This document shows positions 5,502 to 23,278 of a stretch of DNA of 32,975 nucleotides, in pieces. The first letter of the stretch is position 1. The number at the start of each line of letters is the position of its first letter. Source of the stretch: Caldifarciminota bacterium. Its GTDB lineage: Bacteria > Hydrothermota > Hydrothermia > WGAB01. Below the pieces are notes generated by a model. It was not told the origin of the DNA, did not search any database, and worked only from the letters and a program-made list of their open reading frames with translations. The stretch is taken from positions 1 to 32,975 of the forward strand of contig JALXEF010000170.1 of NCBI GenBank assembly GCA_027069855.1, read 5' to 3'. The position numbers were made by a program, and so were the translations under genes.

Positions 5502-6101
5502 CTATCCCTGGAGCCAGAGGGTTTTGAGGAGGGCCAGGGCCAGGATGCCGGTGATCAAGAGAAGGGTGCTTTTCTCGGAGTGCAGAGCCCGGGCCAGGCT
5601 GGGATCGGGGCCGCGGCGGCTCCGGCTGTGGCGGCCCGGCACCGGCACAAACCGCGGGGTTTCCCGCCGGTACTTGCGATAAACCTCGCCGAACTGCTGC
5701 TCCAGATAGGCCTCCTCGGCCTGCACAATGAGGGTGTATTCCAGCCAGAACAGCACGATGTACAGGAGCCAGAGCCACAGCAGGGTGCCGGAAAGCACCA
5801 TCAGGAAGCCGGCCCCCAGGAAGAAGTTGCCCAGATAAATGGGGTTGCGCGTGTACCGGTAGGGCCCCCGGGTGACGAGTTCCGGGGCCTGGATGCGGCG
5901 GGAACGGGTGGTGGGTCCGGTATAGGCCACCGAAGCGATCCGCAGAAGTTCTCCGATGACGATAAGCCCCAGCCCGGCGATCCACTCCTCAACGCCGGCG
6001 CGGCCGAAGAACAGGGCCAACAGCACCAGCGGCACGCCCGCGTAGCTCCGCAGGCGGAACAGTTTCCGACCCCAGCGCACACCCGGCTGCTCAGATTTCA
6101 T
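5502..6101 (-). CDS. isoprenylcysteine carboxyl methyltransferase-like membrane protein
   Basis: A 199-residue integral membrane protein with hydrophobic segments near residues 18-55 and 95-125 and a further one near the C terminus. The ICMT/PEMT family signature is present: LVTRGPYRYTRNPIYLGNF (residues about 76-94), followed after the next membrane segments by EEAYLEQQFGEVYRKY. In this family the motif binds S-adenosylmethionine at the membrane. Bacterial members methylate diverse or unknown small molecules or lipids, so the substrate is not known. The ATG at 6101 overlaps the end of the oxidoreductase gene by 11 bases, making this the last gene of the lipid A operon. A role in modifying an envelope lipid is therefore an inference from context. 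The hydrophobic tail after residue 175 is longer than the usual core. Confidence 0.82.
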   Translation of the reverse strand: MKSEQPGVRWGRKLFRLRSYAGVPLVLLALFFGRAGVEEWIAGLGLIVIGELLRIASVAYTGPTTRSRRIQAPELVTRGPYRYTRNPIYLGNFFLGAGFLMVLSGTLLWLWLLYIVLFWLEYTLIVQAEEAYLEQQFGEVYRKYRRETPRFVPVPGRHSRSRRGPDPSLARALHSEKSTLLLITGILALALLKTLWLQG

Positions 6102-7026
6102 AACGCCTGAGGTTTTCGTGGATGGTGCGCAAAATGCGATGCGCCAGTTCCAGGGCCCGCAGGCCGTCCTCGCCGGTCACCGGCGGCTCCTGGTCGCGGG
6201 CGATGGCCCGCAGAAAGGCCGCGAGTTCCAGCGCCAGGGGCTCCTGGTTGCGGTCCACCTCCGGGAAATAGGGCAGCACGGTGCCGTCGCGCAGGAGATA
6301 GACCTCCACCTCCTTCTTGCGGGTGTCCAGCGAGATGTAGGTGTCCTTCTGGAAAATGCGGAACTTGCGCATGTGGGCCGAGTACACCCGGGAGGCCGTG
6401 AGGTTGACGGTACAGCCGTTTTTGAAGCGGATGCGGGCGTTGGCGATGTCCACCTTGTCGGTGAGCACGGGCACGCCCACGGCATCCAGGAACTCAATCT
6501 CCTGAGCCCCCACGAAGTAGAGCACGAGATCCAGATCGTGGATCATAAGGTCCAGCACCACGTCCACATCCGTACCCCGGCCGGGGAACAGCGTGAGCCG
6601 GTGGCTCTCAATGAACCGGGGGTTCTGCACCCAGTCGCGGATGGCCAGCACCGCGGGGTTGAACCGTTCCACATGGCCCACCTGGAACTTCACCCCCTTT
6701 TCGCGGGCCAGTTGCACGAGCCGGCGGGCCTGATCCAGCCGGGGGGTCATGGGTTTTTCCAAGAACAGGTGCCGCCCGGCCTCCAGCACCTGCCGGGCCA
6801 CCGGGTAATGGGTTTCGGTGGGGGTGACCACGCTCACGGCCTCGGTGGCCTCCAGCAGGGCCTCCAGGGAGGGAAACGCCTGAACACCCCAGCGCTCGGC
6901 CACCTCCCGGGCCCGCTCGGGCCGGATGTCATACACCCCCACGAGGTCGGATTCCTCCAACTGAGCCAGGATCCGGGCGTGCACGGACCCGAGGTGTCCT
7001 ACCCCCACGACGCCGGTGCGGATCAT
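6091..7026 (-). CDS. Gfo/Idh/MocA oxidoreductase, GnnA-like
   Basis: A 311-residue NAD(P)-dependent sugar oxidoreductase. The N-terminal Rossmann fold begins [13 protein letters not shown]; the family signature EKP is at residues 90-92 (FLEKPM). The C-terminal alpha/beta domain carries the catalytic-region motif [13 protein letters not shown] (His163, Asp164). Its position directly after lpxA, with a four-base ATGA overlap, matches GnnA, which oxidises the 3-OH of UDP-GlcNAc so that GnnB can aminate it, giving lipid A with amide-linked 3-acyl chains. GnnB, a PLP transaminase, is not in this window. So the specific GnnA assignment is an inference from context, while membership of the family is secure. 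Similar oxidoreductases beside lpx genes occur without a proven role. Confidence 0.85.
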
Positions 7027-7820
7027 GCGCGCCTGCCTCCTGCACGACGGATCACCCCGCGGCGGCTGTTGCGGAAGAAGTCCACCAGGTGCCGGATCTC
7101 GGGATGGGTTCCAAAGGCCTGGAGCAGTTGCTCCAGGGCCTCCTCCAGGCGCAGGCCCGGGGTGCGGTACAGCAGGCGATAGGCCTCCTTCAGGGCCTGG
7201 ATCGCCTCGCGGCTGAAGCCCCGGCGCCGCAGGCCCACAAGGTTGGGGCCGTACACCCGGGGCGGGTTGCCCTCCACCAGCATATAGGGCGGCACATCCA
7301 GGTTGATGCGGCTCATGCCGCCCACCATGGCATGGGCCCCGATACGGGTGAACTGGTGCACCCCCACCAGGCCCGACACGAAGGCGTAGTCTTCCACCTC
7401 CACATGGCCGGCGAGTTGGACATTGTTGACCAGGATGACATGGGAGCCCACCCGGCAGTTGTGGGCGATATGGGCATAGGCCATGATGAAGTTGTGGTCG
7501 CCCACCCGGGTTTGCTGGCCTTCGCCCGTGGCCCGGTGGATGGTGACGAACTCGCGGATCAGGTTGTGGTTGCCGATGACCACCTCGGTGTCCTCGCCCT
7601 GATAGGTGACATCCTGGGGCGGCATCCCGATGGCGGCGGCGTGGTAAATCCGGTTGCCCTCGCCGATGGTCACCCGGCCCTCAATGCGGACATGGCTCTG
7701 GATCACGGTGCTCGGGCCAATGCGGACCTTCGGGCCGATGACGGCATAGGGCCCGATTTCCACCCCCTCGGCGATCTCCGCCTCGGGATGCACCACGGCC
7801 GTGGGATGGATCCGGCTCAT
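7023..7820 (-). CDS. lpxA: acyl-[ACP]--UDP-N-acetylglucosamine O-acyltransferase
   Basis: A 265-residue LpxA, normal length. It transfers a 3-hydroxyacyl chain from ACP to UDP-GlcNAc in the cytoplasm, the first step of lipid A synthesis. The first 190 residues are a left-handed parallel beta-helix built from hexapeptide repeats ([18 protein letters not shown] and so on). The catalytic histidine is His120 in [12 protein letters not shown]. The signature [21 protein letters not shown] precedes the C-terminal helical domain (from about residue 195). It overlaps lpxC-fabZ upstream and the oxidoreductase downstream by four bases each, so the genes are translationally coupled. LpxD is excluded by the lack of its N-terminal uridine-binding domain and by the LpxA-type C-terminus. 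Confidence 0.95.
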
Positions 7821-9070
7821 GCGTCCACCACCGAAGCCATGAACTCGCCCTCGGCCACGATCCGGGTGCCCACCCGGGCCACGGCCCGCAGTTTGGCCAA
7901 ACGGCCGCCGAAGCGGAGCAGTTCGCCCTCCAAAATCAGGCGGTCGCCGGGCCGCACGGTGTGCCGGAACCGCACCTTGTCCAGGCCGGCGAACACGAGG
8001 AGTTTGCCCTCGGGATCCGGCACGCGGTGCAGCAGCAGGAAGCCGCCGGCCTGGGCCAGGGCCTCCACGATGAGCACGCCGGGCATGATGGGGTTTTCCG
8101 GGAAGTGGCCGGTGAAAAAGGGCTCGTTCATGGTGACATTCTTCACCGCCTGGATCCAGGTGTCGTCCAGGTAGAGCACGCGGTCCACCAGCAGGAAGGG
8201 ATAGCGGTGGGGCATGTAGCGGAGGATCTCGCGGATATCAAAGTTCGGGGTGGCGGCGGCCACGCGCCGGGCGAGGGCTACATGCAGGGCATGCCCCCCT
8301 TTCCACACCACGAACCGGGCCCGGGGCCGGTGCCGGCCCAGGGCGAGGTCGCCCACGAGATCCAGGATCTTGTGGCGCACGGGTTCGTCGGCAAACCGCA
8401 GGCCGTCGGGGTTCATAACGGAGCCGTTGGTGCGGAACACCAGGGCGTTGTCCAGGGAGCCGCCCCGGGCCAGGCCCCGCTCGTACAGGGCCTCCACCTC
8501 GTCTTCAAACAGGAAGGTGCGCGCCGGAGCGATCTCCCGCAGGTAGGTTTCCGGGGTCAGATGCAGGTGCAGCGCGCCCTGGAGCAGGCCGTTGCGGTAG
8601 GACACGCCGTACAGCACCTTCCAGGCATCGGCCGGGGTCACCTGGGCCCAAGCGCCGTCCTCGCCCTCCAGGAACACGGGATCGGCGGGCGCAAAGACCG
8701 GCACCTCGGCGTCCAGTTCCTGCAGGGGTGTTTCGGCGATGCGGCGGGCGTATTCCAGGGCGCTGCCGTCGTAAAAGGGGGCCTCGTCGTGGCTGAAGCG
8801 GAGCACGGCGGCATCCACGCCCAGGCCGAAGAGGGCCGAGAGCACGTGCTCGGCCACCTTCAGGTGGTGATCCCCGGTGCCGATGCCGGTGTACCGCCGG
8901 GTTTCCACCACGGCGCCGGGAACGGCCTCGTAGGTCTGTCCTGTGGGTTCGTGCACCAGCAGGAAGCCCACGCGGTCGGTGCGGGGTTCGATCAAAAGGC
9001 GCACCTCCTCGCCGGAATGCACGCCGAGGCCGCGGAACTCCAGGGAGGTTTTCAGGGTTTTCGCCTTCAT
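7817..9070 (-). CDS. lpxC-fabZ: bifunctional UDP-3-O-acyl-GlcNAc deacetylase / 3-hydroxyacyl-ACP dehydratase fusion
   Basis: A 417-residue fusion. Residues 1-270 are LpxC, the zinc deacetylase that commits to lipid A: Glu74-His75 in [18 protein letters not shown], His233 and Asp237 in [15 protein letters not shown] (zinc ligands His75, His233, Asp237) and the catalytic His260 in KGGHALH. Residues 275-417 are FabZ, the hot-dog-fold dehydratase of fatty acid elongation: His288 in [12 protein letters not shown] and Glu336 in [14 protein letters not shown]. All expected active-site residues are present in both halves. LpxC-FabZ fusions are typical of Bacteroidota and some other diderm phyla and balance lipid A against fatty acid synthesis. 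The ATG overlaps the lpxD stop (ATGA), with AAGGA just upstream. Confidence 0.96.
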
Positions 9071-10068
9071 TTTTCCTTCAGCCGTTTTTCCAGGGCCTTG
9101 AGCCGCCGGAACAGGTCTGGAAGTTTAAAGAACAGGGCCATGGCCCGCAGATACTGGGCCCGGGGGCGGGCGTAGGGGCCGGAGTACACCTCGCCCGGCG
9201 GCACATCCGAGATGATGCCGGCCTTGGCGGTGAGCACGGCCCGGTCGCCGATCTTCAGATGGTCGGCGATGCCCACCTGGCCGCCCATGAGCACATGGTG
9301 CCCCACGGTCACGCTGCCGGCGATGCCGGTCTGGCCGGCGATCACCGTGTGGGGGCCGATCCGGACATTGTGGCCGATCTGCACCAGGTTATCGATCTTG
9401 GTGCCCCGGCCGATGCGGGTTTCGCCCACCGTGGCCCGGTCAATGCAGGTGTTGGCGCCGATCTCGCAGTCGTCCTCAATCACCACCCGGCCCACCTGGG
9501 GAATGCGCACGAACCGGCCGTCCTGTTCCACGAAGCCGAAGCCCTCGCGGCCGATGACCGCCCCGGGCTCAATGCGCACCCGGTGGCCGATCTTGGTGCC
9601 GCGGCCGAGATAGACCCCGGGATAGATGAGGCAGGCCTCGCCGATCTCCACCTCGGGCCCCACGAACACACCGGCCCCGATGCGGGTGCCGGCGCCGATG
9701 CGCGCGCCGGCCTCAACCACGGCGAAGGGCCCGATGCTCACATCCTCGGCCACCTGCGCCTCGGGCGACACCCAGGCCAGGGGGCTGATGCCCTCCTGGT
9801 GCCAGTCGGGCCGGCGGAAAAGCGCGAGAATCGGCACCATGGCGGCCCGGGGATCGTCCACGAGGAGCCAGGCGCCGACGCCTTCAATATCTCGGGCCTC
9901 GCGGGCCACGACGGCGCCCACCGGCGTTTTCAGGGGGGCCTTTTCGGAAAACAGGAACACCAGCCGATCGTCGCCGCCCTCCTCGGGCAGGGCTACGCCG
10001 CGGATTTCCCGTTGGGGATCGCCCACGAGCCGGGCGTGGATCCGGCGGGCCAGGTCAGCAGTCTTCAC
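9067..10068 (-). CDS. lpxD: UDP-3-O-(3-hydroxyacyl)glucosamine N-acyltransferase
   Basis: A 333-residue LpxD, third enzyme of lipid A synthesis, adding the 2-N-acyl chain. Residues 1-95 form the uridine-binding domain. Residues about 100-290 are hexapeptide repeats of a left-handed beta-helix. The catalytic histidine lies in [13 protein letters not shown], and [10 protein letters not shown] and [11 protein letters not shown] are family signatures. The C-terminal helix ([21 protein letters not shown]) is typical. The start is GTG at 10068, preceded by AAGGAG at seven bases, and it overlaps the end of the HAD gene by 14 bases. Confidence 0.95.
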
Positions 10069-13753: not shown

Positions 13754-14512
13754 CTACGGCAGCGTGCGGGTGATGACCTTTCCGGCTTCCAGCAAAGGCA
13801 CGATCAAGCGCCGGTGCAGGGTGTCCACGCCCAGGTCGGCAGGGGTCCGAAGGTCTTCGGCGATCACCCGCTCCTCGCGCTCCGGGGCCCAGAGCACAAT
13901 GGTGCCGGACCGGTACCCGCTCACCACGAAGTCGCCGTTTTTGCAGCGGCCCAGGCCGTCGCCGCCGGCCACGAACCGGAATTCATGGAGCAGTTGAGGA
14001 TCCTGCATGTCCACCGAGCGATACAGCCGGGCCGGTGTGGTGAAGGTGATCACATACAGGGTGTCGCCCTCCACCCAGAGGCCGTTGGGATGGGGCACGG
14101 AGATCCAGCGCAGCACCTTGCCTTCGGCATCCAGTTCGTACACGCGACCGGCCTGGGTATCCGACACATACACACGGCCGTCCGGCGTGGCGGCCACATC
14201 GTTGAGAAATTGGGGCGGCTCGGGAAAGGCCCGGGGTCCGGCGAACAGGCGGACGGTGCCCTCCTGGAGCGACACCCATTGCAGCCGGTCCACATCGGCC
14301 ACCACCACGCCGTCGCGGAGGGCTGCCATGCCCTTGGGATCCCGAAGCCCACGGGCGAACACCCGGGGTTCCTTTTCCTCCTGCCACTGCCAGATCACGC
14401 CGTCGGCCTTCTGGAAGGCCCCGATATCCGAGATCAGCACCTGGTTGTCCAGCACCAGGGCGCTTTCCGGGTGCACAAAGGCCCACAGCAGAAAAAAGCC
14501 TGCCAGGCTCAT
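13754..14512 (-). CDS. secreted SMP-30/NHL-type beta-propeller protein
   Basis: A 252-residue protein with a short N-terminal hydrophobic signal (MSLAGFFLLWAFVHPESA) followed by repeated propeller blades: VLISDIGAF, PKGMAALRDGVVVADVDR, LNDVAATPDGRVYVSDTQAGRVYELD, PNGLWVEGDTLYVITF and TPADLGVDTLHRRLIVPLL. The pattern resembles six-bladed SMP-30/gluconolactonase or NHL propellers. Some members hydrolyse lactones or esters using a divalent metal; others only bind. The ATG at 14512 is preferred over the GTG at 14521 because GAGGAGGTGA sits correctly before the ATG and overlaps the GTG. It lies 24 bases after pgsB in the polyglutamate operon, so a periplasmic role with the polymer is a reasonable inference. 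No enzymatic activity can be assigned. Confidence 0.82.
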   Translation of the reverse strand: MSLAGFFLLWAFVHPESALVLDNQVLISDIGAFQKADGVIWQWQEEKEPRVFARGLRDPKGMAALRDGVVVADVDRLQWVSLQEGTVRLFAGPRAFPEPPQFLNDVAATPDGRVYVSDTQAGRVYELDAEGKVLRWISVPHPNGLWVEGDTLYVITFTTPARLYRSVDMQDPQLLHEFRFVAGGDGLGRCKNGDFVVSGYRSGTIVLWAPEREERVIAEDLRTPADLGVDTLHRRLIVPLLEAGKVITRTLP

Positions 14513-14536
14513 GATGCTCACCTCCTCGGGGAAATT

Positions 14537-15712
14537 TTACGGGTGGAGCGCCTGGAGCCGATCCACGATTTCCTGGCCCAGGCCCACGATGTTGCCCATG
14601 GTGACCACCAGGAGTTCGCGGGCCGGCAGGCTCAGGAGGGCCTGCACCACCCGATCGGCCGGTTGACCCTCCAGGTTCCGGATCCGGTCGGCGGGCACGC
14701 CGTGCCGCCGGAGGGCGGCGGCCACCGGATGCACCACGAACCCGGCCAGAAGGTACCGGTCGGCCACGAGATCGCGGCCCAACAGCCGGGCGAAGGCCTC
14801 GGTGCGTTGCGGCCGGTCTTTGCGCGCCACGAAGAGGGCCACGGTGGCCACCCCGGGGTGCCGGGCCACCACATTCTGCCAGATCAGCCGGGTGGATTCG
14901 GGGTCGTTGGCGGCGAAGGCGTTGTAAACCCACAGGGTTTTATCGGGCAGGGCGATGCGGAACCGCCGCAGGGCGCCGGGGTCCGGGGGCGCCTGCCACA
15001 TCCCCTTCAGGGCCTGCTCGCGGCTCAGGCCGAAGTGCTGCGCCACGGCCAGGGCCAGGGCCACATTCTCGGCGTGTTCCACATAGGAAAAGCCGTCCAG
15101 GTCGCCGGGCTGCACCCACTCCTCGGGCCGAACCACCACCAGTCGGCTGCCCCGGCGCCGGGCTTCGGCCTCCAGAAGCCGGGTGAACCGCTGGTCGGCG
15201 GTGAACAGCACGCCGTTCCTTGGCGTGGTGAGCGCCAGGTGGCGTGCCACATGCGCGAGGGTGGGGCCCATGGTGTCCAGGTGGTCTTCCCGGATGTTCG
15301 TGATCACGCCCACGGTGGACTGCACGATGCGGTCTTCCAGCACCCGCAGGTACTCGGGCGTGATGGCCATGCATTCCAGCACCAGGATGTCGGCGCCGGC
15401 CTCTACGGCCCGTTGCACGATGCGGAGTTGCTCCAGGATGTTGGGCCGGCCCGCCCGGAACACCGGCACCTCGCGGCCGTCGGGGAACAGGAACCGGGGG
15501 GCGGTACCCGTGGTTTTAGCCGCCACCCGGTGGCCCGGCAACTGCCGGAGCGCCGCATAGATAAGCCGGGTCACCGAAGACTTGCCCCGGGTGCCGTTGA
15601 CATGGATGCGGTGGGGAATCCGGGATAGGTTCCGCCGGTGCCGGTGGTACCGGTACGCCTCCACCGCCAGGAAGGTGGCGGTAACGCCCAGCGAAACCTC
15701 CAGCAGGGGCAT
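14537..15712 (-). CDS. pgsB: poly-gamma-glutamate synthase subunit PgsB/CapB
   Basis: A 391-residue ATP-dependent amide ligase that joins glutamates through their gamma-carboxyls, nearly the same length as Bacillus PgsB (393). An N-terminal membrane segment (residues 1-20) is followed by the P-loop NGTRGKSSVTRLI of the Mur-ligase-like fold, KTTGTAPR, LVLECMAITPEY, and VGVITNIREDHLDTMGPTL. The C-terminal part carries NAFAANDPEST and VTMGNIVGLGQ. The ATG at 15712 is chosen because the family's first helix begins there; it follows the barrel gene by two bases. With pgsC it makes the membrane-bound synthase core. The folylpolyglutamate synthase and Mur ligase alternatives are excluded by the N-terminal membrane anchor and the neighbours. 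Confidence 0.94.
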   Translation of the reverse strand: MPLLEVSLGVTATFLAVEAYRYHRHRRNLSRIPHRIHVNGTRGKSSVTRLIYAALRQLPGHRVAAKTTGTAPRFLFPDGREVPVFRAGRPNILEQLRIVQRAVEAGADILVLECMAITPEYLRVLEDRIVQSTVGVITNIREDHLDTMGPTLAHVARHLALTTPRNGVLFTADQRFTRLLEAEARRRGSRLVVVRPEEWVQPGDLDGFSYVEHAENVALALAVAQHFGLSREQALKGMWQAPPDPGALRRFRIALPDKTLWVYNAFAANDPESTRLIWQNVVARHPGVATVALFVARKDRPQRTEAFARLLGRDLVADRYLLAGFVVHPVAAALRRHGVPADRIRNLEGQPADRVVQALLSLPARELLVVTMGNIVGLGQEIVDRLQALHP

Positions 15713-15714
15713 GG

Positions 15715-17478
15715 CTATCGGCGGAGCAGCCGCCAGGACCCGCTGAAACCCACGGTCCAGGCGTCGTAGTTCTTGAAGACCAGGGAGGTGGCCGAATCCG
15801 TGGTGTGCACGCGGCGGCCGCGATAGGCCACGAAGCCGAACACAGGCGGCCCGCCGGGAACCGGCCGCAGTACGGGCGCCTGGATCCGGAACCCGGCCTC
15901 CCGGTCCTCGCGGCCAAAGTGCAGAGCGTCGTCGGCCCGGTTCGTCAGGTAGTGTTTCCAGGTGAGGGAGGCCGAGGCCCTGAGGGCGGCCACCCGGAGC
16001 TCCAGCTGGCCGGTGACGAAGGCATAGCTGGCATCGGGCTCCCAGGGCTGTACCCGGGTTCGGTACACCCCGAGCCGAAGCCCCACGCCGTACCGGCGGC
16101 GCTTGCCCTCCAGCCGCAGGTGCCACCGCTGGCCGGAAACATAGGCGAAGGGTTCATCGTAGCGATACCCGGCCCAGCCCAGGCCCACGGTCCAGGAGCC
16201 CCTCCGCAGGGCACGGCGGCCCCAGACCTCGGCCGAAAGGGCCGAATACCTCAGGGGATCCGTGCGTTGCAGGCTGCGCCGATACACGGGCCGCACATAC
16301 ACGCCGGGCCGAAGGGCGAGGCGGAACCCCAGGGTGTGCCGCCGTTTCAAGCGGCGGCTGCCCTCCACGGCCACGGCGATCCGGTTCTTCACCCGGTTCC
16401 ACAGGTAGCCGTAGGCCGTGAGGGAGCCCGAGAGCCGGCCGCGGCGGCCCCGATGCGTGAGCGTGGCGCGGAGCCGAAGCCGCAGATCGGTGGGGTTCTG
16501 GACGTCGGGATACCGGTACCGGGCGTCGCCCGCGCGGATCCGGTCCAGGTCGTCGGGGGCGAAGGTAAAGGGATTGCTGAGGAAGGCCAGCTGGGTTTGC
16601 AGGCTTAAGGTGGTGCGGGCCCGGCGGGGCAGGCCCACGAGGAAGAGCGGCACATAGAGGCTCCCTCGGGGTGCGCCCAGGAGCCGTTCCCGCGGCGAGG
16701 TTCGGCGCGAACGGCGTTTTTTGGTCTTCGGCACCTCGCGGTAGAGTTTCACGAGGCCCCGGCCGCCGGTCACCTCCACCCGGTACCGGTGCTCGCCGGG
16801 CGGCACCTTCAGAAAGCGCTTACGGGGCCGGGTTACGCGGAGGCTGGTATCCTCCAGCACCCGGGCCCGGAGCGAGGGTTTCCAGCGGTCCTTCAAGCGG
16901 AAGATCACCGAATCGCCCTCCAGCACCCGGAACGCCACGGGCGTGTTTTGCAGCGCGCGGAAATAGAACCACACCCGGGCCGGGCCCTTCACCTGGAACT
17001 CCACGGGCCCGTCCGGCCGCACCCAGTAGTAGGTGGTGCGCTTGTCCTTCACCGCCAGGGTGGCCGGCAGGCCGCCGGTCAGGGGCACCACCCGCCGCAG
17101 TTCGGGCTTGCGCCATTCGTAGTAGCGGATCCGCACAGGCCGGTCGCTGGTAAGCCGGTACCGGCCCTTGGGCAGGTGGATCCGCACCTCCCGGCGCCGT
17201 TTCACCTGCCAGGTCTTCAGGGGTTTGCCGTTCCTGAGGAGCCGCACCCGGGCCGGGCCCCGCTTGCTGAGGTTCTCCAGCCGGAACTTCACGCTCTTGC
17301 TGCGCTTGAGGGTCCAGCGGGCCGGATGCTTCCTGCTCACCCTCAGGTACAGGTACCGCACGCTGTCGCGCACCACGATCTGGCGGCGCCCCTTCAGGGC
17401 GGCCGTTTTATGCACCCAGTAGGCGGGTGCGGGCACGGCGACGGCCAGAAGCAAAATCAGGGCAAGAATGCGCTTCAT
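15715..17478 (-). CDS. secreted, very basic protein with predicted outer-membrane beta-barrel, in the polyglutamate operon
   Basis: A 587-residue protein I cannot assign to a known family. Residues 1-19 are a signal peptide (ending PAPA-Y). Residues about 20-270 are short beta-strand-like repeats extraordinarily rich in Arg and Lys: residues 20-129 hold 37 Arg/Lys against 6 Asp/Glu. From about residue 285 to the end, alternating hydrophobic/polar strands with many aromatic residues (for example RLSGSLTAYGYLWNRV, WTVGLGWAGYRY, AWTVGFSGSWRLLRR) look like an outer-membrane beta-barrel, roughly 14-16 strands by eye. It overlaps the pgsW-like gene by four bases and pgsB follows two bases after, so it is made with the synthase. 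I infer it is the outer-membrane export or anchoring component, its basic part binding the polyanion. Periplasmic localisation only is the alternative. Confidence 0.75.
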   Translation of the reverse strand: MKRILALILLLAVAVPAPAYWVHKTAALKGRRQIVVRDSVRYLYLRVSRKHPARWTLKRSKSVKFRLENLSKRGPARVRLLRNGKPLKTWQVKRRREVRIHLPKGRYRLTSDRPVRIRYYEWRKPELRRVVPLTGGLPATLAVKDKRTTYYWVRPDGPVEFQVKGPARVWFYFRALQNTPVAFRVLEGDSVIFRLKDRWKPSLRARVLEDTSLRVTRPRKRFLKVPPGEHRYRVEVTGGRGLVKLYREVPKTKKRRSRRTSPRERLLGAPRGSLYVPLFLVGLPRRARTTLSLQTQLAFLSNPFTFAPDDLDRIRAGDARYRYPDVQNPTDLRLRLRATLTHRGRRGRLSGSLTAYGYLWNRVKNRIAVAVEGSRRLKRRHTLGFRLALRPGVYVRPVYRRSLQRTDPLRYSALSAEVWGRRALRRGSWTVGLGWAGYRYDEPFAYVSGQRWHLRLEGKRRRYGVGLRLGVYRTRVQPWEPDASYAFVTGQLELRVAALRASASLTWKHYLTNRADDALHFGREDREAGFRIQAPVLRPVPGGPPVFGFVAYRGRRVHTTDSATSLVFKNYDAWTVGFSGSWRLLRR

Positions 17479-18599
17479 ACGGTGTCCTCCGGAGGTTCCT
17501 CGGGCCGGCGCAGGATCCGGCCCACCAGGTCATAGTGGGGCAGAAGCCAGAGCAACAGGGCGTTCACCAGAAGCAGCAGCACGATGACGCCCACCGAATA
17601 CCGCGGCTCCCAGAACAGGGGGCCGATGCCGGGCTCAGGCGTGACCGCCGGCGCCACGGCCAGGCCGTACCGCCGGGCGAGCCGCACGATCTCCAGCAGG
17701 TGTACCACCGGCACCCCCTGCTCCAAAAACCGATACACAACCCCCTGCACCGGCAACCCCTTGAGGAACACCCGTTCCTCGGGCCGGTTCAGACCGGGCC
17801 GGAGCAGGTAGCCCGCCTCGGTGGTGCCCAAACTGGCCACGCCGCCGCCGATGTTCACATAGGCCCGGATGGGGCGGCCCGCTGCGGCCTCCCGGTACCG
17901 CTGCATCCGGAGTTCAATGCTTTTGGCCAGGGGCAGCACATGGATTTTGGGGATGCCGTTGCGGGTGATGGCCGAATCCAGCAGCGCCCGGCCCTCGGGC
18001 GAAAGACCGCGGCCCACATCGTCGGCCCCGCCGTAGGAGGCGGCGATGGACACCGCCGGGATGAGGCCGACCTGGTAGAGTTCGTGTTCCATGTCCAGCC
18101 AGGTCCAGGTGGGCCGGTTGGCGCCCCAGCTGGAGGCGCCCACCGAGGTGATCACGAGGGGCCGGGCCCCGAGCGCCTGGATCGCCATCAGCGTGGCCAC
18201 ATTCAGGGCCGGGAACGATCCGGTCATGCCCACGGCCACGGCGTCGCCCCGGCGCACGCCGGCCTCGTGCAGGAACTGCACCACGAGGGCCGCAAAGTTG
18301 GGGTTGATGCTGGTGAGTTTGGCCGTGAGGTTGCCGGAACTCGTGGTGATCGGCGAGTTTTCCAGGCCGATGAGGCCGGTTTGGGCCGGATCGTTCACCG
18401 GGTCGATCTCAAAGCCATGGGCCAGGAACTGCTGCTTGAGGAAGGCGAAGGCCCGGGCCGTTTCGCGGGCGGCCTGGAGCTTGACCTCAAAAAGCGGCGC
18501 CCGGGTTTCGTGGAGCGAGGCCTCGGCCGCCACCAGGCTCACCAGGGCCACGAGCGCCAGAAATACCATGTCGCGGAGTTGCAGGGCCCGCCGTCTCAT
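17475..18599 (-). CDS. poly-gamma-glutamate system protein, PgsW-like
   Basis: A 374-residue protein with a membrane helix at residues 10-27 and another near the C terminus (VGVIVLLLLVNALLLWLLP, about 338-357), leaving a large extracytoplasmic domain. The central part contains ENSPITTSSGNLTAKLTSINPNF, GDAVAVGMTGSFPALNVA, ITSVGASSWGANRP and YVNIGGGVASLGT. I recognise this as the protein family found with pgsB and pgsC in diderm poly-gamma-glutamate loci (PgsW-type). Its biochemical role is unknown. The conserved Ser/Thr/Gly/Asn stretches and glycine-rich loops resemble a ligand- or nucleotide-binding fold, but no catalytic assignment is safe. It overlaps pgsC upstream and the barrel gene downstream by ATGA, so the three are coupled. 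Confidence 0.85.
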   Translation of the reverse strand: MRRRALQLRDMVFLALVALVSLVAAEASLHETRAPLFEVKLQAARETARAFAFLKQQFLAHGFEIDPVNDPAQTGLIGLENSPITTSSGNLTAKLTSINPNFAALVVQFLHEAGVRRGDAVAVGMTGSFPALNVATLMAIQALGARPLVITSVGASSWGANRPTWTWLDMEHELYQVGLIPAVSIAASYGGADDVGRGLSPEGRALLDSAITRNGIPKIHVLPLAKSIELRMQRYREAAAGRPIRAYVNIGGGVASLGTTEAGYLLRPGLNRPEERVFLKGLPVQGVVYRFLEQGVPVVHLLEIVRLARRYGLAVAPAVTPEPGIGPLFWEPRYSVGVIVLLLLVNALLLWLLPHYDLVGRILRRPEEPPEDTV

Positions 18600-19048
18600 A
18601 GCACCGGTGCCCCTCCGTGGATCAGGATCAAAAGGAGCCGGATCAATACCGTGACCACCAGCATCATGCTCAGGGTGGCCCGCACCCCCTGCTTGTCCAT
18701 CCAGTAGGCCATGAGCCCGGGGATGATGAACCCAAAGGCCCGCACCGCCAACACCATGTCGCCCACGGGCGTTTGCGCCAGTACCTGGGAGGCCTGGGAA
18801 AAGAAGAAGCCGATGACCACGGCCAGGAAGAGCCGGCGCCGGCCGTACACCAGCACATAGCGGGATACCAGTTTCAAAAGGCCCAGGGTGAGAAAGGCGG
18901 CGAGCAGGGTGCCGAGCAAAAGGTCCCAGCGGGTGAGGATCAGGGCGATGTACCCGGGCACCACCAGGCCGCCGGCCACATAGCCCAGCACCTCGGAAAG
19001 GTACAGGGAGAGCAGAAGGCCGAGGGCAATGGATTCCGCCAGGATCAT
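18596..19048 (-). CDS. pgsC: poly-gamma-glutamate synthase subunit PgsC/CapC
   Basis: A 150-residue integral membrane protein, the same size as Bacillus PgsC (149). It has four to five hydrophobic helices; the first contains the characteristic LGLLLSLYLSEVLGYVAGGLVVPGYIAL-type signature (residues about 8-36), followed by FLAVVIGFFFSQA, RAFGFIIPGLMAYWMDKQGV and a C-terminal helix. With PgsB it forms the catalytic membrane complex. The ATG at 19048 is preferred to the TTG at 19057, which lies inside the -10 box. It is the first gene of the operon pgsC, pgsW-like, barrel, pgsB, propeller, rtcA. Confidence 0.93.
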   Translation of the reverse strand: MILAESIALGLLLSLYLSEVLGYVAGGLVVPGYIALILTRWDLLLGTLLAAFLTLGLLKLVSRYVLVYGRRRLFLAVVIGFFFSQASQVLAQTPVGDMVLAVRAFGFIIPGLMAYWMDKQGVRATLSMMLVVTVLIRLLLILIHGGAPVL

Positions 19049-19102: not shown

Positions 19103-20854
19103 ATGCCTGTACTGGCTTTCCTTGCGTTTCTGCTGGCCCTTATGGCCGCCCTCGGGCTCTACGGCCGGCGGCAGCCGGGTCTCTTGGGGCTCCGGGGGCT
19201 CAGTTTGGTACTCTTGCTGTTGATGGCCTGGAACCCCGGGGTGCCCTGGACCCGCACCCGCCACCTGCAACCCGTCGTGGTGGTGGACGCTTCCCGGAGC
19301 ATGGGCCAGGCCGACAAATGGCCCCAGGTGCAAAAGGTGCTGCAACAGCGGCTCGCCGGGCACCCCCTGCGGGTGGTGTTCCTGGTGGATACCGACCTCG
19401 TGGCCCGGGTGGATTCCCCGGTGGGGCGGTTCACCGATCTCTCGGTGCCCCTTCGGCGGCTCCGGGCGCCGATCGTGCTGCTTTCCGACGGCCTGCACAA
19501 CACCGGCCCTGCGCCCCTGGAACAACCTTTCCCCTACCCGGTGTCGGTGTGGTGGCCCCGGGTGGCGGCCGGGGTTTCGCCCCTGGCGGGCCTGAACCTG
19601 GAGGCGCCCCTGCGTCTGCTGGAACAGCAACCCTTTACCGTGGCCCTGCGGTGGGCTTCGCCGCCGCAGGCAGGCACGCTCCAGGTGTTCATAGACGATT
19701 CGCTGCTGGGCCGGTTCTTTGTGCCAGCGGGCGCTTCCTGGCAGCAGGCCCTGTCGGTGGCCGGGCTGCCGGCCGGCAGCCACCGGGTGCAGGTGCGCTG
19801 GGGCAGGTTTCAGAAAAGCCGCGCGTTGCAGGTGGATCCGGTGCCCTTCCAGGCGCTGGTGCGGGTGTACCGGCCGCTGCCCGTCGTGCGGTACCTCCGG
19901 CACACCCTGGAGGGCTTCGGCCGGGTGGAGGTGGTGCTGAAAACCCCTCAAGGGTGGCGTCGGCTCGGCGAAACCCCGAGGGCCGGCCCGGCCCCTGCAG
20001 ATCCCGAAAACTACACCGTAGTGGTGGAGATCGCTCCGCCGGCGCCCGAGAGCCTGTCCGTGCCCCAGGTGATCGTGGCAGGCCCGGAGCAGCCCCGCGG
20101 CCTCGCTCTGCAGGCCGGCCCGTGGTGGTATCCGAACCGGCCCGACCTGCCGCCCCTGGACTACCTGCGGGGCCCGGCCAAAGGCACACCGCTCTTGCAG
20201 GTCAAGGGGCGCCGGGGCACGCTGCAACCCGTGGCCGTGATCGCCGGTCGCCGGCTCTGGCTGCTCAGCGGCCAGGTGTGGCGCTGGGCGCTGGCATCGC
20301 CGAGCCTCTGGGATTCCCTGTGGGGCCGGTGGCTGGGCCGGCTCCTGGCGGGCCGCGTGCTGTTCCGGGCCTGGATCCAGCCTCGGACAGCCGCTCCGGG
20401 CAGCCCCATTACAGTGGAAGCGCTGCTTACCGACCTGCGGGGCCGGCGGGTGCCCGGCGCCTGGGTACGGGTGCAAAACGGCCCGGAACTGCTGGAACTG
20501 GACCCCGGCCGGTACTCGGGCCGGTTACGGGCGGCCGACAGCCTGGGGCTGCATCGGATCCGGCTGGTCTATGGCGCCGGCGCCGACACCTTAGGCCGCA
20601 AAACCCTGAAGTACCGGGTGAAGCCCTTAGACCTGGAAACCCTCACCCAGGGCGTGGACAGCCTGTTATTGGCCGAACTCGCCCGGCGCACCGGCGGCCG
20701 GGTGTTGCCGCCCGCGGGCCCGGTAACCCTTCAGCCCTATGGGGAACGGCAAACCCGGAAACTCTACTTTGCGCGGTCGCCCTGGCTCCTGTTGGCCCTC
20801 CTGATCTCCCTGTTCCTGGAATGGCTCCTCCGCCAGCGCAGGGGGTGGCTGTAA
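19103..20854 (+). CDS. membrane-anchored VWA-domain protein
   Basis: A 583-residue protein with two N-terminal membrane helices (residues about 3-19 and 27-43), a von Willebrand A-like domain and a C-terminal helix (LLLALLISLFLEWLL). The metal-ion-dependent adhesion site DxSxS is at residues 62-66 (VVVVDASRSMG) and IVLLSDGLHNTG gives the second acidic motif. The rest is beta-rich, with a Bat-like or carboxypeptidase-like Ig region near 445-510 (PGSPITVEALLTD). Two helices then VWA then C-terminal helix resembles Bat-type and related periplasm-facing VWA proteins of Bacteroidota and other diderms. No partner MoxR ATPase is seen in the window. It is transcribed divergently from the polyglutamate operon with a 54-base gap, so shared regulation is possible. 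Function unknown. Confidence 0.75.
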   Translation: MPVLAFLAFLLALMAALGLYGRRQPGLLGLRGLSLVLLLLMAWNPGVPWTRTRHLQPVVVVDASRSMGQADKWPQVQKVLQQRLAGHPLRVVFLVDTDLVARVDSPVGRFTDLSVPLRRLRAPIVLLSDGLHNTGPAPLEQPFPYPVSVWWPRVAAGVSPLAGLNLEAPLRLLEQQPFTVALRWASPPQAGTLQVFIDDSLLGRFFVPAGASWQQALSVAGLPAGSHRVQVRWGRFQKSRALQVDPVPFQALVRVYRPLPVVRYLRHTLEGFGRVEVVLKTPQGWRRLGETPRAGPAPADPENYTVVVEIAPPAPESLSVPQVIVAGPEQPRGLALQAGPWWYPNRPDLPPLDYLRGPAKGTPLLQVKGRRGTLQPVAVIAGRRLWLLSGQVWRWALASPSLWDSLWGRWLGRLLAGRVLFRAWIQPRTAAPGSPITVEALLTDLRGRRVPGAWVRVQNGPELLELDPGRYSGRLRAADSLGLHRIRLVYGAGADTLGRKTLKYRVKPLDLETLTQGVDSLLLAELARRTGGRVLPPAGPVTLQPYGERQTRKLYFARSPWLLLALLISLFLEWLLRQRRGWL

Positions 20855-21661: not shown

Positions 21662-23278
21662 ATGGATTCTTCGCGCCGTCACAACATTGGGTTTCTTGAA
21701 GCGGTCAGCATCGGCATCGGGGGCATGATCGGCGGCGGCATCTTCGCCGTGCTGGGCCTCAGCGTGCAGATTTCCCGGGGTGCCGCTCCGCTGGCGTTTC
21801 TGCTGGCCGGGCTGGTGGCCCTCAGCACAGCGTATGCCTACGCCAAACTCTCGGTTCGCTATCCCAGCGAGGGCGGCACCATTGAGTACCTGGTGCGGGC
21901 CTTCGGCCCCAACGGCTTTTCCGGCGGGCTGAACCTTCTCCTTTTGGTGAGTTACACCGTGATGATCGCCCTGTACGCCTACGCCTTCGGCAGCTATGGA
22001 GCGGCATTGCTGGGGAACAGCACCGTCTGGAAACACCTCCTGATGAGCGCCGTGGTGGTTTTGTTCATGGGCATCAACGCCCTGGGCGCCTATGTAAGCG
22101 GCAAAGCAGAGGACCTCATGGTGGCCTTCAAACTCCTGGTGCTGCTTCTCGTGGCCGGCGCCGGCCTGGCCTTTGTGCACTGGCAACGCCTGGCCCCCTC
22201 CAACTGGCCCGACATGACCAGCGTCGTCGCCGGAGGCATGCTCATTTTCCTGGCTTACGAGGGCTTTGAACTCATCGCCAACACCGCCCAGGATGTGGAA
22301 CGCCTGGAGGTGCTTCCCCGGGCCTTTTACACCGCCGTGCTTCTGGTTATCTCGGTGTATGTGCTGATCGCCGTGGTCACCGTGGGAACCCTGCCCTTGC
22401 ACCAGATCCTCCAGGAACGGGACTACGCCCTGGCTGCCGTAACCCGGCCCGTGTTGGGAGCCACAGGCTTTTGGCTCGTGAGCCTGGCGGCCCTGGTATC
22501 CACCAGTTCCGCCATCAACGCCACCCTCTACGGAACCGCCCGGGCCAGCTATATGGTGGCAAAATACGGCCAGTTGCCCCGGATCATGGAGCGTAAGGTG
22601 TGGAAGGACGCCGCCGAAGGACTGATTCTCATTGGCATACTCGCCCTGCTCCTCGCCAACTTCGCCAGCCTGGAAACCATCTCTACCGCCGGCAGCGGGG
22701 GCTTTTTGCTGGTGTTCTTTATGGTGAACCTGGCGGCCTTCCGCCTGCGGCGCGAAATCAAAGCCAGGAGCGGCATCGTGCTTGTAGGGATGTTCCTGAC
22801 CCTGATGGCCCTGGCGATCCTGCTGTTTCGGATGTACCGGCTGGCCCCGGAAGCCCTGGAAATTTTTGCCATGCTGGTGATCCTCTCCTTTGTTGCCGAA
22901 GGCCTGTATCGGCTCCGTACAGGACGGGAGCTCCGCCACTACCTGGACGACCGGCTGCGCCAGCGGGAGGAGAACCTACAAAACTGGGCCTCCTGGATTG
23001 ACCTGGTGCTCCGCCACATCTACCAGCGTTTCAAGGACGCAGAGGTGTACCTGGTGGGCAGCCTGGCCCGTCACGAAAAGGCCCCCACCCACGATGTGGA
23101 CCTTCTGGTCATTACGGAGCACCCTCCCAGCCCAAAGGAAGAACGCCAGGTGGCCAAGGAGCTCACCGAGGGACTCACCCGCCAGCACCCCGTGCATTTT
23201 CACTTTGCCTCTAAAGGGCAACGGGAGGCCGCGCTCCGTTGTGCCCGGGTATACCGGCGGCTTCAGCCTTCCTCCTGA
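21662..23278 (+). CDS. APC-family amino acid permease fused to a C-terminal nucleotidyltransferase domain
   Basis: A 538-residue single frame. Residues 1-415 are an APC-superfamily transporter with about 12 helices: the first has the family signature SIGIGGMIGGGIFAVLG, followed by YAKLSVRYPSEGGTIEYL and helix-6-like FLAYEGFELIANTAQD. It should move amino acids or related amines across the inner membrane. Residues about 420-538 are a soluble domain like minimal nucleotidyltransferases (NTP_transf_2): GSLARHEKAPTHDVDLLV, with GS at 466-467 and Asp478/Asp480. The third carboxylate expected on the later strand is not obvious (VHFHF at 511-515), so activity is uncertain. A short basic linker joins the halves. 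The fusion suggests transport controlled by nucleotide binding or nucleotidylation. Substrate unknown. The last part could be a regulatory domain only. Confidence 0.85.
   Translation: MDSSRRHNIGFLEAVSIGIGGMIGGGIFAVLGLSVQISRGAAPLAFLLAGLVALSTAYAYAKLSVRYPSEGGTIEYLVRAFGPNGFSGGLNLLLLVSYTVMIALYAYAFGSYGAALLGNSTVWKHLLMSAVVVLFMGINALGAYVSGKAEDLMVAFKLLVLLLVAGAGLAFVHWQRLAPSNWPDMTSVVAGGMLIFLAYEGFELIANTAQDVERLEVLPRAFYTAVLLVISVYVLIAVVTVGTLPLHQILQERDYALAAVTRPVLGATGFWLVSLAALVSTSSAINATLYGTARASYMVAKYGQLPRIMERKVWKDAAEGLILIGILALLLANFASLETISTAGSGGFLLVFFMVNLAAFRLRREIKARSGIVLVGMFLTLMALAILLFRMYRLAPEALEIFAMLVILSFVAEGLYRLRTGRELRHYLDDRLRQREENLQNWASWIDLVLRHIYQRFKDAEVYLVGSLARHEKAPTHDVDLLVITEHPPSPKEERQVAKELTEGLTRQHPVHFHFASKGQREAALRCARVYRRLQPSS

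What the first reader, a model, noticed from the sequence alone, without database searches (positions are those of the whole stretch)
14537..19048. Poly-gamma-glutamate operon of a diderm, without pgsA and with an unknown outer-membrane component
pgsC, a PgsW-like gene, a secreted barrel gene and pgsB follow one another with overlaps or 2-base gaps. PgsB and PgsC match the Bacillus proteins in length and motifs. In Gram-positives export needs PgsA (CapA), absent here. A polymer made at the inner membrane of an LPS-bearing cell must cross the periplasm and outer membrane, and the barrel gene is a natural candidate. This would be a dedicated export route for polyglutamate.
Basis: partly seen in the sequence, partly recalled or inferred. 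Interest (0 to 1): 0.8.

Follow-up and report, generated by a model that had tools for sequence, protein, structure and literature searches.

The report
Envelope-spanning polyglutamate export operon in diderms
A bacterium with two membranes carries the genes that make the polyglutamate polymer together with a two-part secreted protein that ends in an outer-membrane pore; the same gene set recurs across many two-membraned lineages, so it is probably how such cells get polyglutamate out, a step that appears not to have been described.

Summary
The operon is real: pgsC, pgsW, a secreted gene and pgsB on the minus strand (14537-19048), joined by 4-base overlaps and a 2-base gap. PgsB, PgsC and PgsW all pass NCBIfam cut-offs. 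No CapA/PgsA is detected in the 100%-complete genome, which has LpxC (inside the window) and Omp85 proteins. The "barrel" gene is a fusion of two families named in no library searched: X, a duplicated periplasmic beta-sandwich, and Y, a predicted 14-stranded outer-membrane barrel (AlphaFold2 pLDDT 90; best PDB match OmpG, and matches to PgaA and AlgE). The usual order elsewhere is pgsB-C-W-X-Y. In 120 genomes of the phylum PgsW and Y occur together in 55 (4 W-only, 6 Y-only; Fisher p 3e-22). In 396 Bacteroidota genomes all six strong Y hits lie in that gene set. X is fused to inner-membrane PgsW in some lineages and to outer-membrane Y in others, so it probably bridges the two. I read X-Y as the periplasmic and outer-membrane conduit for polyglutamate (confidence 0.7). 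It is not universal: some Polyangia, Planctomycetota and Nitrospirota loci have PgsBCW without X-Y, and the Flavobacteriia sampled have X without Y. No transport or polymer was tested.

The parts
18596..19048 (-). pgsC (CapC), 150 aa, multi-pass inner-membrane subunit of the polyglutamate synthase
   Evidence: TIGR04011 equivalog over cut-off, PF14102 98 bits; several hydrophobic segments
17475..18599 (-). pgsW, 374 aa: TM helix 8-27, periplasmic alpha/beta domain 29-334, TM helix 336-355
   Evidence: TIGR04332 316 bits; AlphaFold2 pLDDT 94; no PDB fold match at E<=0.001
15715..17478 (-). X-Y fusion gene, 587 aa, signal peptide at the N terminus
   Evidence: no Pfam/NCBIfam/PHROGs family; homologues next to pgsW in relatives
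17101..17418 (-). X domain, first beta-sandwich (about residues 21-126)
   Evidence: AlphaFold2 strands; repeat of the second copy, hhalign probability 99.6%, E 6e-25
16723..17091 (-). X domain, second beta-sandwich (about residues 130-252)
16627..16719 (-). low-confidence linker, residues 254-284
   Evidence: pLDDT below 50
15721..16617 (-). Y domain, predicted 14-stranded outer-membrane beta-barrel (residues 288-586) with a helix at 308-316
   Evidence: Foldseek OmpG 1.4e-6, PgaA 1.6e-5, AlgE 1.3e-4; some family members hit OM barrel models
14537..15712 (-). pgsB (CapB), 391 aa, ATP-dependent gamma-glutamyl ligase, P-loop NGTRGKSS
   Evidence: TIGR04012 389 bits, PF08245
7817..9070 (-). LpxC-FabZ fusion (context: lipid A synthesis, diderm cell)
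   Evidence: PF03331 240 bits + PF07977

Best explanation
The operon encodes a trans-envelope polyglutamate synthesis and export system. PgsB (cytosolic ligase) and PgsC (inner membrane) make poly-gamma-glutamate at the inner membrane. PgsW, two TM helices around a large periplasmic alpha/beta domain, takes the place that PgsA has in Gram-positives as the outward-facing subunit. X, a tandem periplasmic beta-sandwich, bridges PgsW to Y. Y, a 14-stranded outer-membrane barrel with a net-positive lining, lets the polyanion out. Shown here: gene content, order, families, predicted folds, co-occurrence and fusions. Inferred: that the product is polyglutamate, that X touches PgsW and Y, and that the polymer passes through Y.
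For: PgsB, PgsC and PgsW over NCBIfam cut-offs; PgsB over its cut-off and PgsW (two of them fragments at contig ends) are in the same 25 genomes of the relatives set, own genome included. PgsW in 0 of 14 controls, although one control passes the PgsB cut-off and B. subtilis is among those that ring. Y with PgsW in 55 genomes, W-only 4 (three at contig ends), Y-only 6, p 3e-22. In one family B-C, W and X-Y lie in separate places yet are kept, so proximity alone does not explain the link. 6 of 6 strong Bacteroidota Y hits lie in pgsB-C-W-X-Y. Fusions PgsW-X (Krumholzibacteriota; X's signal segment kept as a third hydrophobic segment, which puts X in the periplasm) and X-Y (this class). X and Y distances follow those of PgsB/C/W about as closely as those follow each other. 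Barrel fold and matches to OmpG, PgaA, AlgE. Inward-facing strand positions 25 K/R against 8 D/E in the window, net positive in nearly all of 31 members. LpxC and Omp85 in the genome, no CapA. Published: Cloacimonadota flocs sit in a DAPI-stained matrix taken to be polyglutamate (PMC13082233), and Cloacimonadota loci here carry X-Y.
Against: Some diderms have PgsBCW without X or Y (L115, L144, L147, L153, L158, L159, and G046 in the same phylum; L145 is cut off upstream of pgsW), so X-Y is not always needed or is replaced. The Flavobacteriia sampled have X but no Y. A weak Y-like barrel occurs outside pgs loci (G043). 14 strands is fewer than the 16-18 of known polymer translocons (PMC9601211), though loops and strand shear were not examined. 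The lumen charge is a crude parity estimate. No polymer, transport or interaction data.
Confidence: 0.7

Rival explanations
1. X-Y does not conduct the polymer but anchors or retains it at the surface (as Wzi does for capsules), or helps processing; the polymer crosses the outer membrane by another route.
For: Wzi is a barrel that anchors capsule without exporting it (PMC9601211). PgsBCW exists without X-Y in several diderm groups. 14 strands is small for a polymer channel.
Against: No other outer-membrane export component is visible in the conserved gene set. X-Y is kept even where unlinked. The PgsW-X and X-Y fusions fit a through-line better than a surface anchor.
Confidence: 0.15
2. The system makes or moves something other than long polyglutamate, for example a short gamma-glutamyl chain on an envelope component, or Y is an uptake porin for glutamate or polymer fragments.
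For: The product is not known in this organism. PgsB belongs to the Mur ligase/FolC superfamily. OmpG-like barrels are often uptake pores (general knowledge).
Against: PgsB and PgsC match equivalog models for polyglutamate synthase. A published Cloacimonadota culture shows presumed extracellular polyglutamate. No permease is conserved in the set.
Confidence: 0.1
3. The barrel gene is an unrelated porin that happens to lie in the operon.
For: Operons in compact genomes can include unrelated genes; the downstream propeller, RtcA and PolX genes here probably are such a case.
Against: 55 shared genomes of 120, 6 of 6 strong hits in an independent Bacteroidota sample, conserved order across many lineages, fusions, correlated divergence.
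Confidence: 0.02

Closest known systems
Bacillus PgsBCA(E) / CapBCA(E) polyglutamate synthase
   Same: PgsB ligase and PgsC membrane subunit, both over equivalog cut-offs
   Different: No PgsA/CapA in the genome; PgsW instead, plus X and Y
NCBIfam TIGR04332 'poly-gamma-glutamate system protein' (PgsW here)
   Same: PgsW is a clear member, 316 bits
   Different: The family name gives no mechanism; its fold and its tie to X-Y are added here
Synthase-dependent polysaccharide exporters (AlgE, PgaA, BcsC)
   Same: Inner-membrane synthase plus periplasmic part plus outer-membrane barrel; Y matches PgaA and AlgE by fold
   Different: Polyamide, not sugar; predicted 14 strands, not 16-18; beta-sandwich X instead of TPR repeats
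Composite OPX/beta-barrel translocon of Myxococcus (EpsY/EpsX, PMC9601211)
   Same: Separate periplasmic protein and outer-membrane barrel encoded side by side
   Different: X is not an OPX (Poly_export) protein; barrel of 14, not 18 strands
EpsL (TIGR03014), XrtB-linked polysaccharide outer-membrane protein
   Same: 6 of 51 X/Y family sequences hit it, best 1.1e-7
   Different: The window protein itself does not hit it
CapsuleFinder PGA model (PMC5542703)
   Same: Catalogues PGA loci in most phyla, diderms included, with CapB and CapC mandatory and CapA accessory
   Different: Its PGA model names no outer-membrane component, although the paper says diderms need at least one more protein

Membership tests
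Poly-gamma-glutamate synthase (PgsBC) | PgsB equivalog (TIGR04012) | tested here: met
   389 bits against 222.7
Poly-gamma-glutamate synthase (PgsBC) | PgsC equivalog (TIGR04011) | tested here: met
   103 bits against 96.45
Poly-gamma-glutamate synthase (PgsBC) | PgsA/CapA (PF09587) in the genome | tested here: not met
   no match in G000; rings in 35 of 60 relatives and 7 controls. Counted as accessory in PMC5542703
Poly-gamma-glutamate synthase (PgsBC) | product is poly-gamma-glutamate | not testable with these tools
   needs chemistry
TIGR04332 poly-gamma-glutamate system protein | score over the curated cut-off | tested here: met
   316 against 100
Synthase-dependent OM translocon (AlgE/PgaA/BcsC) | outer-membrane beta-barrel | tested here: met
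   AlphaFold2 and Foldseek; prediction only, first-to-last strand closure not measured
Synthase-dependent OM translocon (AlgE/PgaA/BcsC) | 16-18 strands | tested here: not met
   14 long strands
Synthase-dependent OM translocon (AlgE/PgaA/BcsC) | TPR periplasmic scaffold | tested here: not met
   the periplasmic part X is a duplicated beta-sandwich
Composite OPX/beta-barrel translocon | Poly_export (PF02563) domain in the periplasmic partner | tested here: not met
   one of 51 members at E 0.027, none in the window protein
EpsL (TIGR03014) | match of the window protein to the family model | tested here: not met
   0 families for the window protein; weak hits in 6 relatives

The most novel reading that the evidence does not exclude
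PgsBCW-X-Y is a separate class of outer-membrane export machine, dedicated to a polyamide instead of a polysaccharide or a folded protein, spread through the FCB superphylum and neighbouring diderm lineages, in which PgsW replaces PgsA and a beta-sandwich bridge joins it to a small barrel.
Probability: 0.5. Interest if true: 0.85.

Novelty: new variant of a known kind. Interest (0 to 1): 0.72.

Why it matters
How diderm bacteria move polyglutamate across the outer membrane seems not to have been described: the capsule survey says diderms need at least one more protein but names none for PGA (PMC5542703), and the 2026 Cloacimonadota paper describes the operon as CapB, CapC and CapA-like, without mentioning the outer membrane in its main text (PMC13082233). 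The two unnamed families X and Y give a specific candidate that can be tested by deletion and staining, and a marker for finding such producers in genomes.

Tried and rejected
Rejected: that the barrel gene is one novel protein (it is a fusion of two families). Rejected: chance neighbour (co-occurrence, independent Bacteroidota sample). Rejected: PgsA elsewhere in the genome. Rejected: OPX membership of X. Tested, nothing found: close relatives of the barrel protein in viral contigs; PDB relatives of X, Y or PgsW by sequence (no match to any at E <= 0.05); a fold match for PgsW (none at E <= 0.001). CapA near pgs loci: 1 of 80 loci (L127), but my profile came from only three seed sequences and is insensitive. 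The beta-propeller, RtcA and PolX genes downstream of pgsB were left out: in the closest relative other genes follow pgsB. Not tested: Fusobacterium, Leptospira and other known or suspected Gram-negative producers.

Full report
Observation. On the minus strand pgsC (18596-19048), pgsW (17475-18599), a secreted gene (15715-17478) and pgsB (14537-15712) follow one another with overlaps of 4 bases, 4 bases and a gap of 2 bases. PgsB, PgsC and PgsW pass the curated cut-offs of TIGR04012, TIGR04011 and TIGR04332. The secreted gene has no match in Pfam, NCBIfam or PHROGs.

Host. The closest relatives found with PgsW are titled candidate division WOR-3 / Hydrothermota; the closest (L081, 61% PgsW identity) is a WOR-3 MAG. 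The genome has LpxC, which lies in this window fused to FabZ, with LpxA and an LpxD-like gene beside it, and three Omp85 matches, so the cell is a diderm with lipid A synthesis. CapA/PF09587 gives no match in the genome.

The secreted gene is two families. Relatives keep the usual order pgsB-pgsC-pgsW-X-Y, with X (about 240-320 aa) and Y (about 300-420 aa) as separate genes; in this class they are mostly fused, and in the window pgsB has moved behind them. Profiles built from four split WOR-3-type genes each pick up X and Y across loci titled Bacteroidota, Cloacimonadota, Zixibacteria, Krumholzibacteriota, Calditrichota, Latescibacterota, Ignavibacteria, Neomarinimicrobiota, Fermentibacteria and others; titles are those of the depositors. 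Of 62 PgsW loci with at least 2.5 kb downstream, 53 have X and 45 have Y.

Structure. AlphaFold2 on a 51-row alignment gives mean pLDDT 90 for the window protein: two beta-sandwich domains (a duplication, hhalign E 6e-25), a low-confidence linker and 14 long strands. Foldseek's best matches are OmpG; PgaA and AlgE also match. TM-scores to OmpG normalised by its length are 0.53-0.60, so this is fold-class likeness, not close kinship. PgsW is predicted (pLDDT 94) as a periplasmic alpha/beta domain between two TM helices, with no PDB fold match at E <= 0.001.

Co-occurrence. In the relatives set, own genome included, PgsB over its cut-off and PgsW are found in the same 25 genomes. In the phylum set of 120, Y is in 61 and PgsW in 59, with 55 shared; Fisher p 2.7e-22, not corrected for shared ancestry. 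Of the four W-only genomes three end at a contig edge after pgsW or inside X (G033, G077, G092); G046 is a true lack. Of the six Y-only genomes G020, G036 and G108 begin at a contig edge, G026 is fragmented (410 contigs, no PgsB over cut-off and no PgsW), G066 is marginal (E 1e-3) and G043 is a weak hit beside a beta-propeller and glycosyltransferase genes. In family f6 B-C, W and X-Y lie in separate places; G006 and G032 keep all of them, and in G015 pgsB reaches the contig end. In 396 Bacteroidota genomes six have strong Y hits, all in pgsB-C-W-X-Y; three others are marginal, and one of those, looked at, is a long protein at a contig start.

Bridge. In Krumholzibacteriota-type loci PgsW is fused to X, with a third hydrophobic segment where X's signal peptide would be, so X would still face the periplasm; a second protein joins an X-like half to Y. 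In the window's class X is fused to Y. X is thus tied covalently to the inner-membrane part in one lineage and to the outer-membrane part in another, which suggests a bridge. Pairwise distances of X and Y follow those of PgsB, PgsC and PgsW (Spearman 0.54-0.65) about as closely as those follow each other (0.59-0.65).

Lumen. By parity of strand residues the inward-facing positions of the window barrel hold 25 K/R and 8 D/E, and most family members are net positive. This fits a polyanion but is a rough estimate without coordinates or a control barrel.

Limits. Polyangia, Planctomycetota, Nitrospirota and some Deltaproteobacteria loci have PgsBCW without X or Y, and the Flavobacteriia sampled have X without Y. 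The set is therefore common, not universal, among diderms. No monoderm PgsW was seen, but only the best 80 of 214 relatives were listed.

Literature. Fusobacterium nucleatum is cited as the first Gram-negative shown to make polyglutamate (PMC3815933). CapsuleFinder lists PGA loci in most phyla without an outer-membrane part (PMC5542703). Cloacimonadota enrichments show DAPI-stained material taken to be polyglutamate (PMC13082233). I found no paper naming X, Y or an outer-membrane route for this polymer in the open-access library; subscription papers are mostly missing there.

Noticed in passing
window 21662-23278 (+): Amino acid permease (PF13520) fused to a C-terminal nucleotidyltransferase domain (PF01909), an unusual pairing.
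   Followed up: no
window 13754-14521 (-): Secreted SGL/NHL beta-propeller 15 bases after pgsB; relatives also lie some kb from the unlinked pgsW in L054 and L062. Many other pgs loci have an LVIVD beta-propeller protein after Y.
   Followed up: partly
window 19103-20854 (+): Membrane protein gene divergent from pgsC; distant relatives lie next to pgsW in L069 and some kb from pgs in L083 and L084.
   Followed up: no
window 6091-10068 (-): Lipid A cluster with an LpxC-FabZ fusion, LpxA, an LpxD-like gene and a GFO/IDH/MocA oxidoreductase.
   Followed up: partly
L134 13254-15707: LVIVD protein carrying an FGE-sulfatase domain behind the X-Y gene in a Krumholzibacteriota locus.
   Followed up: no
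L121 2271-4826: 851 aa protein matching X over residues 26-635 and Y over 490-851, apparently more than one X unit fused to Y.
   Followed up: no
L129 4052-4894, L146 11998-12816, L137 12636-13529: After X, one gene on (two in L137), a 270-300 aa secreted protein without Y or Pfam match, possibly a replacement barrel.
   Followed up: partly
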